From contig NZ_CP027848.1 in NCBI RefSeq assembly GCF_003019275.1, positions 124,001 to 188,000 of the forward strand: a DNA stretch of 64,000 nt, in the 5' to 3' direction. This stretch comes from Staphylococcus muscae (GTDB lineage: Bacteria > Bacillota > Bacilli > Staphylococcales > Staphylococcaceae). Numbering within the stretch: the stretch's first letter is position 1; each line of letters opens with the position of its first letter. This document shows, one piece after another, positions 24,464 through 28,112 of the stretch. The notes beneath the pieces were generated by a model. The model worked only from the letters and a program-made list of their open reading frames with translations, was not told where the DNA came from and did no database searches. The translations under genes were made by a program, and so were the position numbers.

Positions 24464-24510
24464 TATAAATTTAGGTATCATTTGAAACTAAATTTATAAT
24501 GGTATACAAT
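24464..24510 (+). promoter_or_regulatory. Bacteriocin promoter with inverted-repeat operator
   Basis: TATAAATTTAG (24464-24474) and CTAAATTTATA (24488-24498) are a perfect 11-bp inverted repeat with 13-bp centre. The -35 TTGAAA (24482-24487) lies inside it and the right arm fills the spacer; the -10 is TACAAT (24505-24510), 17 bp from the -35. A dimeric regulator bound here would block RNA polymerase. The regulator is not identified in the window. Confidence 0.65.
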
Positions 24511-24512
24511 GT

Positions 24513-24561
24513 TTTCAGAAAGTTCTTTCTTCACAGACAATTGTCTCATTCATTTCTGAAA
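24513..24561 (+). promoter_or_regulatory. Leader fold able to pair near the bacteriocin RBS
   Basis: TTTCAGAAA (24513-24521) pairs with TTTCTGAAA (24553-24561), whose end runs into the binding site GAAAGGAAG. A 12-bp palindrome AGACAATTGTCT lies between. The fold could regulate translation of the bacteriocin; this is inferred from complementarity only. Confidence 0.4.
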
Positions 24562-24572
24562 GGAAGATTTTT

Positions 24573-24974
24573 ATGAAAAAATCAATTCTTTTATCTTCAC
24601 TCTTAGCACTTGGAATTTCAGGACTTGGTAGCATTGCAAAAGCAGATGAAATTAGCATCAACGGTGGTTCAGAAAATGTAGACAACTATATCGGTTTAGT
24701 GCGCTCAGAAATTTCAGATCAACCTTTAAACCAAGACAGCACAGTTTTCAAGTATATTGCGGCTGGACCAGTGAATGGTGGTTATTGGATTCGTGGCACT
24801 AATAGCGCATATGTCATTTCCAGATATAAACATTATAAAAAAGAGGCAAGAGCATCTGTTGTTAATGGTATAGGAGGCTATAATGGTACTCCTTGGAATA
24901 AACCAGGTTCTTTAGCAACTGCACAACTAAAGAAAACAAAACATGGCAATAAAGCATATTATGATCATAAATAA
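24573..24974 (+). CDS. Lactococcin-972-family bacteriocin precursor
   Basis: 133 residues from ATG 24573 after AAAGGAAG. A clear Sec signal peptide (MKKSILLSSLLALGISGLGS...) ends at AKA around residue 24, leaving ~109 mature residues with no cysteines. The C-terminal half has the family pattern: GGYWIRGTNSAYVISRY, then a SVVNG segment, a Trp, an AT/AQ segment, and KAYYDHK at the end, comparable to VVNN...WAKATV...KASFYY in lactococcin 972. That bacteriocin binds lipid II and blocks septum formation in sensitive cells. The following genes encode the multi-TM protein and ABC ATPase that typically accompany this family (TIGR01653/01654/03608 sets), which supports the call. The mature peptide is longer than lactococcin 972 (66 aa). 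Confidence 0.82.
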   Translation: MKKSILLSSLLALGISGLGSIAKADEISINGGSENVDNYIGLVRSEISDQPLNQDSTVFKYIAAGPVNGGYWIRGTNSAYVISRYKHYKKEARASVVNGIGGYNGTPWNKPGSLATAQLKKTKHGNKAYYDHK

Positions 24975-25017
24975 AGGACAAAATAATTTGTAATTGTAAT
25001 GAGTAATTAACAGATTA

Positions 25018-25066
25018 GATGTAATGAATAGAAAGCATATTTAGTAGCGCTTTCTATTCATACATC
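25018..25066 (+). terminator. Long hairpin after the bacteriocin gene
   Basis: GATGTAATGAATAGAAAGC pairs with GCTTTCTATTCATACATC as an 18-bp stem with one bulged A. No T-tract follows, so it may be a leaky terminator or an mRNA-stabilising end that makes the bacteriocin message more abundant than the downstream genes. Confidence 0.55.
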
Positions 25067-25106
25067 TACATAAAATAGTGTATCTGATAGATTTGAGGTG
25101 GATTGT

Positions 25107-27143
25107 ATGAAAAATCATTTTATTTTTATGTGTGGCAATTTCATTGACATTAAGTTTGATAGTGATAGATTCAGCTAAATCAAATGCTTTTTATAATCAT
25201 ATTGAGAAAGGTAGTGAAAAGATTAACTTTTATTTTGATACTGTCCCCAAAAAACATTCAAAAGATGCATGGACATTTTTTACATATCTCTCAAAAAAAT
25301 ACAATGTTGAAATAACAAAAGTTACATATGCCAATGATTATAAAATATTGATTAATACAACAGATCATCAGTTAAGACAAGAAGCAGACAAAAATAAAAA
25401 TTTAAAACTCTTTGATAGTGAACTTGAGATTAAAGTTTTACCTTTAAATAAAACGAATCTTACAGAAGAAGGGATATATTATTTAAAAGGGAATGAGAAA
25501 GATACTCGACAAGTAAATGTACTTATAAATCAAGATGTAGGATCGACATATGTTATGGATCATTCATTTTTTGATGGCTTGTCCTTAGATTTCTTTAGTA
25601 CGTTTTTAACAGTGTTTTTAATTGTGCTACTATTCGCTGTTCTGTTGCATGATTTATTAAATCAAAAAGAACAATTAAAGATTCTTTATGATTTAGGCTA
25701 TCGAAAATCTCAAATTATAAAATTTATAATTCATGGCTTATCTAAATATATATGGATGTATATGGTGTCCAGTATGATTTTGACGCTATTAAGTTATATT
25801 ATGATATACAAAGATACATACATTCATATTGCATTGTTAATTGCTGTATTGATAGAAGTGTTATTAATTGTATTGTTGTCTATTTTTATAGCAGTAATTG
25901 TTCATTTTTTTGTGCTTCGATACGCTAGAAACAGCCATGGTTACAGTAAATATGCATTGATAACCATGTATATGATGATTTCAGTAATTGCGATTATATT
26001 GGTCACAATGTCAACATTGCAGATTATTTCTAACTACAAAGACTATCAAAAACAAATAGTTTCTTTAAAACATTGGGACATTACACAAAATATATATACG
26101 ACAAATATGTATGAAGTTGGGCAAGTTAAAAATCGAAGTATAGATAAAGCTATTAGTGTTAAAACTAAGAACTATTTTTTAAGCTCAGATAGCCAAGGAT
26201 TCATTGTAGATATGGAGAATTTTTATTTTGATGGTAATTACTTTTTATATCAATTGAATGCAAAAGAGAATGCTGATATTGAATCCAATGGTAAAACTAT
26301 TGTTATTGATATGCATTATTTAAAAAGACATCCTATTAAAACGAATCAAGGTGATAATGTTATGCGATATATGCAGAAAGAAGATAAAACATTAAATATA
26401 CTTGTTCCTATTAAATTAAAGCGGTATGAACAAAAAATTAAAACAAACTTTAGGGAATATTTTACATTCAAAAAAATATTGAACACAGGCGTAAAGGCAT
26501 AGACCCATCATTAAATATCAACATTATATGGGTAAAAAATGATACAGATTACTTTACATATAATGCTGAAATTGGTGGGGCTAAGAATACAGTTGTTGCA
26601 CCAATTGCTGTGATTGAAACAGGAAATTTAGATCCATTAGATTATGAACATTATTATTCAAATGACTATTATTTTAAAAGTTATTTAGATAATCCGTATG
26701 AAACAATCCATGAAGGTTTGAAAAAACATAAACTTGATGGTGTGATTCGAAGTGTAACTTCTGTTTACGATACGAAGATAGATATTGTAAAAGGATTGCA
26801 GACGGAAATCTACAAATACACAGGATTAGCTTTGTTAACAAGTATCACATTCATACTTACAACATTGACGTTTATTCAAATTTACTTCAAGTCATTTCAA
26901 TTCCAAATATTTCTGAAACGGACAATGGGGTATAGTTACTGGTCGATTCATAAGTGGATGGTGCTTTTCATCGTGTCTTTACATATATTCATGGGGACAC
27001 TGTTATTACCGAGCCACAATACCATTGCGATTTCAGTCTTTATGTCAATTACATTCATTGAAGTGTTATCTGTTGTGTACACGTTTATGAAGTTAAACCG
27101 TGAAAATGTCAATCTCGTATTGAAGGGGAAGAAAGATGATTAA
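25107..27143 (+). pseudogene. Bacteriocin-associated multi-TM protein, interrupted by two A-tract frameshifts
   Basis: ATG 25107 has a good site (GAGGTGG) but reads out of frame after an A5 tract (25110-25114); with four or seven A it would enter the long frame as KIILFLCVAISLTLSLIVID. The long frame (first usable codon GTG 25132) runs to 26502. There an A7 tract (26470-26476) again breaks it; with one more A it continues as KNIEHRRKGIDPSLNI into the frame ending at 27143. Together about 680 residues with an N-terminal span, a large extracytoplasmic domain and about seven more spans, as in the DUF1430/TIGR01654 'bacteriocin-associated integral membrane protein' of lactococcin-972 loci, thought to act in immunity or export. 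The last 8 bases overlap the ATPase gene. Confidence 0.75.
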
Positions 27144-27765
27144 GTTACAAAATATTAATAAGTCGTTCGGTCGCAAGCGTATTTTTGAAAATTTTGATTT
27201 AATGATTCAACAAGGGGACTTTGTTGTTATACATGGTGCCAGTGGAAAAGGAAAGTCAACGTTATTGAATATTATTGGTTTATTGGAAAATCCTGATTCA
27301 GGTACAGTCACTTTTAAAGATAAAGTGATTCAAAAAGAGAAAGATAAGTTGACCTTTAAACGTGATGATATCGCATATGTGTACCAACACTATGGCTTGT
27401 TAGAAAACGAATCTGTGTTGAAGAATTTAACGTTGCCTTTGAATGTGCATAAAAAAGATCAAGCACGTATCGAAGCAGTGATGACACGTGTAGGATTAGA
27501 AAATTTACCACTCAATACAAAAGTTTATACATGTAGTGGTGGAGAGCAACAGCGTATTGCAATCGCACGTGCAATATTGAAAAATCCAAGTATCATTATT
27601 GCAGATGAGCCCACAGGTAACTTAGATGATCATAACAGCGAGACAGTGATAGAGATGTTTAAAGCCTTGAATGCATCAGGTGTTACAGTTGTGTTAGCAA
27701 CGCATGAGCCGATGTATTTCAGCATTGGTAGTAAAGAGATTGATTTAGATGCCATTATAATTTGA
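27136..27765 (+). CDS. ABC transporter ATP-binding protein, lactococcin-972 group
   Basis: 209 residues, intact, ATG 27136 overlapping the end of the membrane gene. Walker A is GASGKGKST (34-42), the Q-loop is AYVYQHYGLL, the signature is CSGGEQQRIAIARA (from 133), Walker B is IIIADEPTGNLD (~153) and the switch His is in LATHEPM. It belongs to the MacB/LolD-like exporter ATPases; position and sequence fit the TIGR03608 group linked to lactococcin-972 bacteriocins. It would energise the preceding membrane protein for immunity or release. Because the partner is frameshifted, its function here is uncertain. Confidence 0.9.
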   Translation: MIKLQNINKSFGRKRIFENFDLMIQQGDFVVIHGASGKGKSTLLNIIGLLENPDSGTVTFKDKVIQKEKDKLTFKRDDIAYVYQHYGLLENESVLKNLTLPLNVHKKDQARIEAVMTRVGLENLPLNTKVYTCSGGEQQRIAIARAILKNPSIIIADEPTGNLDDHNSETVIEMFKALNASGVTVVLATHEPMYFSIGSKEIDLDAIII

Positions 27766-27782
27766 ATTGATGACAAGGCGGA

Positions 27783-28112
27783 ATGAATGAGATTATGAGA
27801 AAAGGATGTTTTTCATTTATTGTTTTGTTACTAGTGATCATCTATATCGCTTATATTATGTTCCATGATACACCGCAATATGCAGTTCATGGAGGATGTG
27901 AAATTGTCGATGATATGGATGGAAGTATTTATGTGCAGAAACCAAATAATTCACTGAATATGATACATTTACCTGAGAATACAGATGATTCGTGGTTAAG
28001 TCAAATTAGAGACAAAATTGTAGATTACACGTATCAAAAGCATAAAAAGCGTCATCCACATACATTAATTCCAAGACAGCATCGTATTAATTGTGAATCA
28101 CAAGTAAAGTAA
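27783..28112 (+). CDS. Small membrane-anchored protein of unknown function
   Basis: 109 residues, starting at ATG 27783 (AAGG ends 4 bases upstream; an in-frame ATG at 27795 is an alternative). One N-terminal membrane span (CFSFIVLLLVIIYIAYIMF, ~9-27) is followed by a hydrophilic domain of ~80 residues with two cysteines (GGCEIVDD and NCESQ) and a basic stretch YQKHKKRHPH. I do not recognise the family. It lies 17 bases after the ABC ATPase, so it probably belongs to the bacteriocin operon, where it could be an immunity or accessory protein. That role is inference from position only. Confidence 0.65.
   Translation: MNEIMRKGCFSFIVLLLVIIYIAYIMFHDTPQYAVHGGCEIVDDMDGSIYVQKPNNSLNMIHLPENTDDSWLSQIRDKIVDYTYQKHKKRHPHTLIPRQHRINCESQVK

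What the first reader, a model, noticed from the sequence alone, without database searches (positions are those of the whole stretch)
24464..28112. Lactococcin-972-type bacteriocin locus between ileS and lspA
A signal-peptide bacteriocin precursor (24573-24974) is followed by the DUF1430-like multi-TM protein, the group-specific ABC ATPase and a small anchored protein. Lactococcin 972 blocks septum formation through lipid II, so this is a candidate anti-competitor system in a Staphylococcus, with a mature peptide clearly longer than the founding member and an extra uncharacterised gene (27783-28112).
Basis: partly seen in the sequence, partly recalled or inferred. Interest (0 to 1): 0.8.

Follow-up and report, generated by a model that had tools for sequence, protein, structure and literature searches.

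The report
Lactococcin-972-type cassette with broken immunity gene
This is a small chromosomal gene set for making a lactococcin-972-type antibacterial protein, in which the gene for the main self-protection pump appears broken and an extra gene looks like a membrane-anchored offshoot of the antibacterial protein itself.

Summary
The genes are real. The 24573-24974 product is a long-form lactococcin-972 (Lcn972) family protein: Pfam PF09683 is above its cut-off, TIGR01653 falls 0.5 bit short, and the predicted fold matches Lcn972 (2lgn) and Formosin D (9hkj). Long forms (about 130 aa) beside a diverged DUF1430/ABC pair occur in several staphylococci and on S. epidermidis plasmids, so the cassette itself is not new. 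The mid-gene break is shared by a second database sequence; the start break is not. An intact relative folds like type VII ABC permeases (YbbAP, BceAB), which fits immunity better than export. Among five genomes examined there, the ileS-lspA site is full (G074), permease-broken (window), without bacteriocin gene but with pump (G044), empty (G073), or cut by a contig end (G054). The extra gene (4 of 84 genus genomes) is probably a diverged, membrane-anchored derivative of the bacteriocin precursor; the two share a motif found only twice in the 2.1-Mb genome. Its role (decoy immunity or transporter accessory) is inferred. Verdict: new variant of a known kind.

The parts
24482..24510 (+). candidate promoter, TTGAAA-17 nt-TACAAT
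   Evidence: where promoter-like sites in the region were no more frequent than in shuffles (17 found, mean 28.7); the element is aligned in G074 and G044 and is kept in G044 where the bacteriocin gene is gone
24573..24974 (+). long-form lactococcin-972 family precursor (133 aa; signal about 1-24, acidic extension 25-67, basic core 68-133)
25024..25061 (+). intercistronic hairpin (13-bp perfect arms) between bacteriocin and DUF1430 genes
   Evidence: hairpin also in G074; hairpins of other sequence in some other loci
25107..26502 (+). first part of the broken DUF1430/TIGR01654 permease gene (start codon at 25107 out of frame with 25132-26502)
26505..27143 (+). second part of the broken DUF1430/TIGR01654 permease gene, in another frame
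27136..27765 (+). ABC ATPase of the lactococcin-972 group (TIGR03608-like), open
27783..28112 (+). small N-terminally anchored protein, probable derivative of the bacteriocin precursor; start more likely at 27795 by comparison with relatives
24374..28086 (.). stretch present here and absent from G073, where the 23552 ORF is followed directly by lspA

Best explanation
A chromosomal lactococcin-972-type cassette inserted between ileS and lspA. The precursor is secreted by Sec and freed by signal peptidase (inferred from its signal peptide). The basic 66-residue core is an Lcn972 fold that probably acts on the cell wall of competitors (inferred from Lcn972). The DUF1430 permease with its ABC ATPase is a type VII (BceAB/YbbAP/MacB-like) machine that works from the outer face of the membrane, most likely pulling bacteriocin off its target: immunity, not export. 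The small anchored protein is probably a duplicated and diverged precursor that kept the leader as an anchor, plus the extension motif and the first part of the core; it most likely helps immunity, as a tethered decoy or as an accessory of the transporter. In this genome the permease gene is broken, so the cassette is partly decayed although bacteriocin, ATPase and small protein are open. Shown: gene content, the two frames, folds by prediction, site states in five genomes. Inferred: activity, target, immunity, role of the small protein.
Confidence: 0.72

Rival explanations
1. The DUF1430/ABC pair is the exporter of the bacteriocin, as the TIGR03608 name suggests and as one staphylococcal genome paper presumes, with processing at a double glycine by the ABC transporter.
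For: NCBIfam description of TIGR03608; PMC11161930 passages.
Against: The precursor has a Sec-type signal peptide (by eye); the permease model resembles BceAB/YbbAP; the ATPase is 209 aa and none of its 19 Pfam matches is a peptidase domain; G044 keeps the pair without a bacteriocin gene. For mediterrocin only the signal-cleaved form was seen and its signal peptide is predicted to be Sec-dependent (PMC12345188, passages).
Confidence: 0.1
2. The frame breaks are assembly errors in A-rich runs and the system is intact.
For: Both breaks lie in or next to A runs; P0029 lacks the start break.
Against: The second break is shared by P0029; of 48 ORFs compared no other has its match split over two frames; the genome is 99.95% complete in one contig. 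P0029 may come from another assembly of the same strain, so it is not surely independent.
Confidence: 0.25
3. The small protein is an unrelated accessory of the transporter (a YsaD/YxeA-like role) and the shared motif is convergence or chance.
For: YsaD, a small protein with an N-terminal signal, accompanies the Bce-like YsaCB (PMC7438565); G044 small protein gives weak pairwise scores; the leaderless long-form HMM barely sees the small proteins (E 1.0 and 1.7, two of four); only 54 columns align without the leader.
Against: No NCBIfam match, TIGR01655 included, in any of the 4 members at E<=10 (weak matches may be filtered out), and one unrelated Pfam match at 0.15 in one member; leaderless profile score 26.8 against at most 17.9 in 100 column shuffles; the motif occurs twice in the whole genome, both in this cassette.
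Confidence: 0.2
4. The whole island is decaying junk; the small gene is a relic of a duplicated bacteriocin gene.
For: Permease broken; the neighbouring 23552 ORF is broken in G074; tandem bacteriocin genes exist in S. rostri.
Against: The small gene is open in all 4 genomes, with dS 1.8 (saturated) and dN/dS 0.24 between G044 and G054, and has 33 invariant columns in 4 rows including two cysteines and four histidines; two rows are 96% alike.
Confidence: 0.15

Closest known systems
Lactococcin 972 (Lactococcus lactis pBL1; PDB 2lgn) with orf2-orf3
   Same: signal-peptide precursor, core fold, a bacteriocin gene with two genes for a putative ABC transporter
   Different: window precursor has about 43 extra residues between signal and core, lies on a chromosome, has an extra anchored protein, and its permease gene is broken
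Formosin D (PDB 9hkj)
   Same: best structural match, also covering part of the extension (model 37-133 to chain 42-126)
   Different: 22% identity over the aligned part; no paper on it found, so activity and processing are unknown to me
Long-form lactococcin 972 cassettes of staphylococci (S. rostri, S. epidermidis plasmid pCSF41498_3, Staphylococcus sp. IVB6227)
   Same: same precursor architecture; same diverged DUF1430 and ATPase where the record reaches that far
   Different: no small anchored gene seen after the ATPase at places other than ileS-lspA; permease open in G074's second copy and on the plasmid
Mediterrocin (Mediterraneibacter gnavus)
   Same: Lcn972-family protein with signal peptide, DUF1430 protein and ABC protein in the cluster (PMC12345188, passages)
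   Different: 89-residue mature protein; other neighbours
BceAB / YsaDCB detoxification modules
   Same: type VII ABC fold; YsaDCB protects L. lactis from Lcn972; a small signal-bearing protein goes with it
   Different: about 8 long helices in two repeats (my reading of the DSSP line) against 10 membrane helices in BceB; no two-component system next to it; small protein without a TIGR01655 match

Membership tests
Lactococcin 972 family bacteriocin | Pfam PF09683 above gathering score | tested here: met
   29.3 against 22, residues 69-130
Lactococcin 972 family bacteriocin | TIGR01653 above curated cut-off | tested here: not met
   31.6 against 32.1 bits; relative P0007 27.6, and no TIGR01653 match at E<=0.01 for P0011, P0013 or the L074 protein: I read this as a limit of the model for long forms and rest membership on Pfam and fold
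Lactococcin 972 family bacteriocin | Lcn972 beta-sandwich fold | tested here: met
Lactococcin 972 family bacteriocin | signal peptide and no cysteines in the mature part | tested here: met
   sequence; Cys 0 in 25-133; cleavage site AKA-DE by eye, no SignalP run
Lactococcin 972 family bacteriocin | antibacterial action through lipid II at the septum | not testable with these tools
   needs purified protein
TIGR01654 / DUF1430 permease | curated TIGR01654 cut-off | tested here: not met
   pieces 40.2 and 81.6, three intact relatives 133.0-142.1, cut-off 189.35
TIGR01654 / DUF1430 permease | PF07242 above gathering score | tested here: met
   37.6 against 28.2 in the second piece
TIGR01654 / DUF1430 permease | one open reading frame | tested here: not met
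   two frames in the window
TIGR03608 ATPase | curated cut-off | tested here: not met
   224.8 against 254.85, yet its best NCBIfam match
Type VII ABC (MacB/BceAB/YbbAP) | FtsX-like repeats with extracytoplasmic domain | tested here: met
YxeA/TIGR01655 (for the small protein) | profile match | tested here: not met
   no NCBIfam match at E<=10 in 4 members

The most novel reading that the evidence does not exclude
The small anchored protein is a membrane-tethered copy of the bacteriocin's acidic pro-like extension and first core hairpin. It binds the basic core at the producer's own membrane and neutralises it: immunity by self-mimicry, evolved by duplication of the toxin gene, and perhaps the reason why a strain with a broken permease can keep an intact bacteriocin gene.
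Probability: 0.2. Interest if true: 0.75.

Novelty: new variant of a known kind. Interest (0 to 1): 0.45.

Why it matters
How lactococcin-972-type producers protect themselves is only putative in the papers I saw, and database names disagree (exporter or immunity). One chromosomal site with several natural states (full, permease broken, bacteriocin gene lost, empty) makes the question directly testable. If the small gene is an immunity factor made from the toxin's own precursor, that would be an unusual way to gain immunity.

Tried and rejected
Inverted repeat 24464-24498 as an operator: perfect 11-bp arms here but the left arm is not kept in G074; set aside. Viral origin: no relative of bacteriocin or small protein in viral contigs. 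Small protein on plasmids: no match at E<=0.1. Known family for the small protein: none credible in Pfam or NCBIfam. Single origin of the site copies from the ATPase tree: not recovered; the four site copies need 4 changes (3 forced by well-supported branches) and 0% of 200 bootstrap trees have one; the G074 and G054 site copies pair with their own genome's second copy with modest support (81/49 and 92/84), and G044's two lie together in an open fork. Gene conversion is my reading: the last 110 residues of G074's two permeases are 104/110 identical against 51% over the whole. The 23552 ORF (HEIGHYH motif) as a processing peptidase: it occurs in 10 of 84 genomes, also in G073 without the cassette, so not linked. 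Sequence search of A2 against the PDB gave only weak hits to unrelated proteins. Of the A3 search's weak hits, G001, G075, G076, G048 and G003 were read and set aside as unrelated; G026 and G024 were not followed up.

Full report
What is there. Between ileS (20314-23061) and lspA (28223-28708) lie, all on the + strand, a 133-aa ORF (24573-24974), a DUF1430-type gene in two frames, a 209-aa ABC ATPase (27136-27765) and a 109-aa ORF (27783-28112) (ileS and lspA named by eye).

The permease gene. The two pieces match successive parts of TIGR01654. G074 has one 682-aa ORF and G044 one of 681 aa. Of 57 G074 ORFs of at least 100 aa, 50 had a tblastn match in the window, 48 of them over 60% identity. 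Six of the 48 were flagged: DUF1430, split over two frames; a partial match near window 2400; a long start overlapping the gene before (stop at residue 14); the 23552 ORF, broken in G074; a repeat with one stop; and one cut by the window end. P0029 (longest contig 2,095,116 bases) carries the same mid-gene end but a normal start; it may be another assembly of the same or a near strain. No TIGR01654 match exists elsewhere in the genome.

States of one site. G074: full set. Window: permease broken. G044 (its permease contains the fragment P0027, named S. microti, letter for letter): no bacteriocin gene, promoter region kept in front of the permease. G073: the 23552 ORF (99.6% identical) is followed directly by lspA. 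G054, which is S. rostri DSM 21968 by a contig of equal length and matching sequence, has ATPase, small gene and lspA in order, with the contig starting inside the permease gene, and two tandem bacteriocin genes at another place after a clpB-like gene. The site was not looked at in the other 79 genus genomes; 34 other DUF1430-type loci held (L027-L030, L050-L078, L093) show no lspA, ileS or rluD in their flanks. Between window and G074, dS is 0.56 in ileS, 0.63 in rluD and 0.52 in pyrR but 0.09 in the bacteriocin gene, 0.17 and 0.37 in the permease pieces, 0.39 in the ATPase, 0.086 in the small gene and 0.22 in lspA, which points to exchange of parts of the island between the lineages.

The small gene. 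It is found in 4 of 84 genus genomes. These are the four in which I saw the DUF1430/ATPase pair at ileS-lspA. It is not in 16 loci where the pair sits elsewhere (on L027-L030, L065-L072, L074-L077; ATPases placed), nor after the ATPase on the S. epidermidis plasmid. All four carry GGCExVDD just after the anchor; most long-form precursors carry GGSENVDN or close to it after the signal. A DNA pattern for this motif occurs twice in the 2.1-Mb genome, in the bacteriocin gene and in this gene, and 0 times in the backward control; the pattern was written after seeing the two, so it shows rarity, not an independent test. Without the leaders, best local scores against 23 long forms are 69, 74, 47 and 57 (G000, G074, G044, G054); shuffles reach them in 0, 0, 7 and 2 of 300. 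Against 20 long forms and 1227 pieces of other ORFs, 2, 0, 20 and 4 pieces score as high; the four highest pieces are short-form Lcn972 proteins that had slipped into the set, and the best other piece scores 54. Profile-profile: P 2.6e-6 with leaders, probability 76; 2.5e-4 without, probability 43, score 26.8 against at most 17.9 in 100 column shuffles. The leaderless small-protein HMM ranks bacteriocins next after its own members (E 0.0015, reversed decoys 0.37 at best), but the leaderless long-form HMM gives the window's and G074's small proteins only E 1.0 and 1.7 and does not list the other two. In the search of 108 family genomes, 14 had a match at E<=0.05: the four members, bacteriocins (4.7e-5, 1.9e-4, 2.1e-4, 0.02), and unrelated or unread frames, one unrelated at 8.6e-5. 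I judge homology likely (about 0.8), not proven. dN/dS is 0.22-0.45 over four pairs and 33 columns are invariant in 4 rows, including Cys39 and Cys104 and four histidines, so it looks like a kept protein rather than a relic.

Novelty. Lcn972 cassettes in staphylococci are known (PMC11161930; one search counted 87 papers with both terms) and long forms are already named lactococcin 972 family in databases. The listings showed me no paper on the anchored precursor-like gene; that is a statement about those listings only.

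Noticed in passing
window 23552-24253: ORF with a HEIGHYH motif and no Pfam or NCBIfam match above cut-off; the open frame runs 293 aa and G044's copy starts further upstream; broken in G074. 10 of 84 genus genomes have it.
   Followed up: partly
window about 23370-24373: 98.6% identical to G073, with two 300-base blocks (from 23501) at 100%, while the blocks just upstream are 78-79% and those after the island 81-87%: a recent recombination tract ending at the island edge.
   Followed up: partly
L065 (G074:C1:602200) and L032:9936-11984: The two DUF1430 copies of one genome share 104 of their last 110 residues though 51% alike overall, and have similar ATPases: gene conversion between copies is likely.
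   Followed up: partly
L026 / L033, S. rostri: Two tandem long-form bacteriocin genes (132 and 135 aa) after a clpB-like gene (named by eye).
   Followed up: no
L093, S. epidermidis plasmid pCSF41498_3: Complete three-gene long-form cassette on an 8.3-kb mobilizable plasmid; its ATPase protein is identical to that of G012.
   Followed up: no
window 25024-25061: Strong hairpin without a T run between bacteriocin and permease genes; G074's second copy and the S. epidermidis plasmid have strong hairpins of different sequence there, M. sciuri a weaker one.
   Followed up: partly
G001:C138:16522-16797 (L085): The A3 profile search gave E 8.6e-5 to a frame with stops inside an unrelated gene: a warning about such E-values.
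   Followed up: yes
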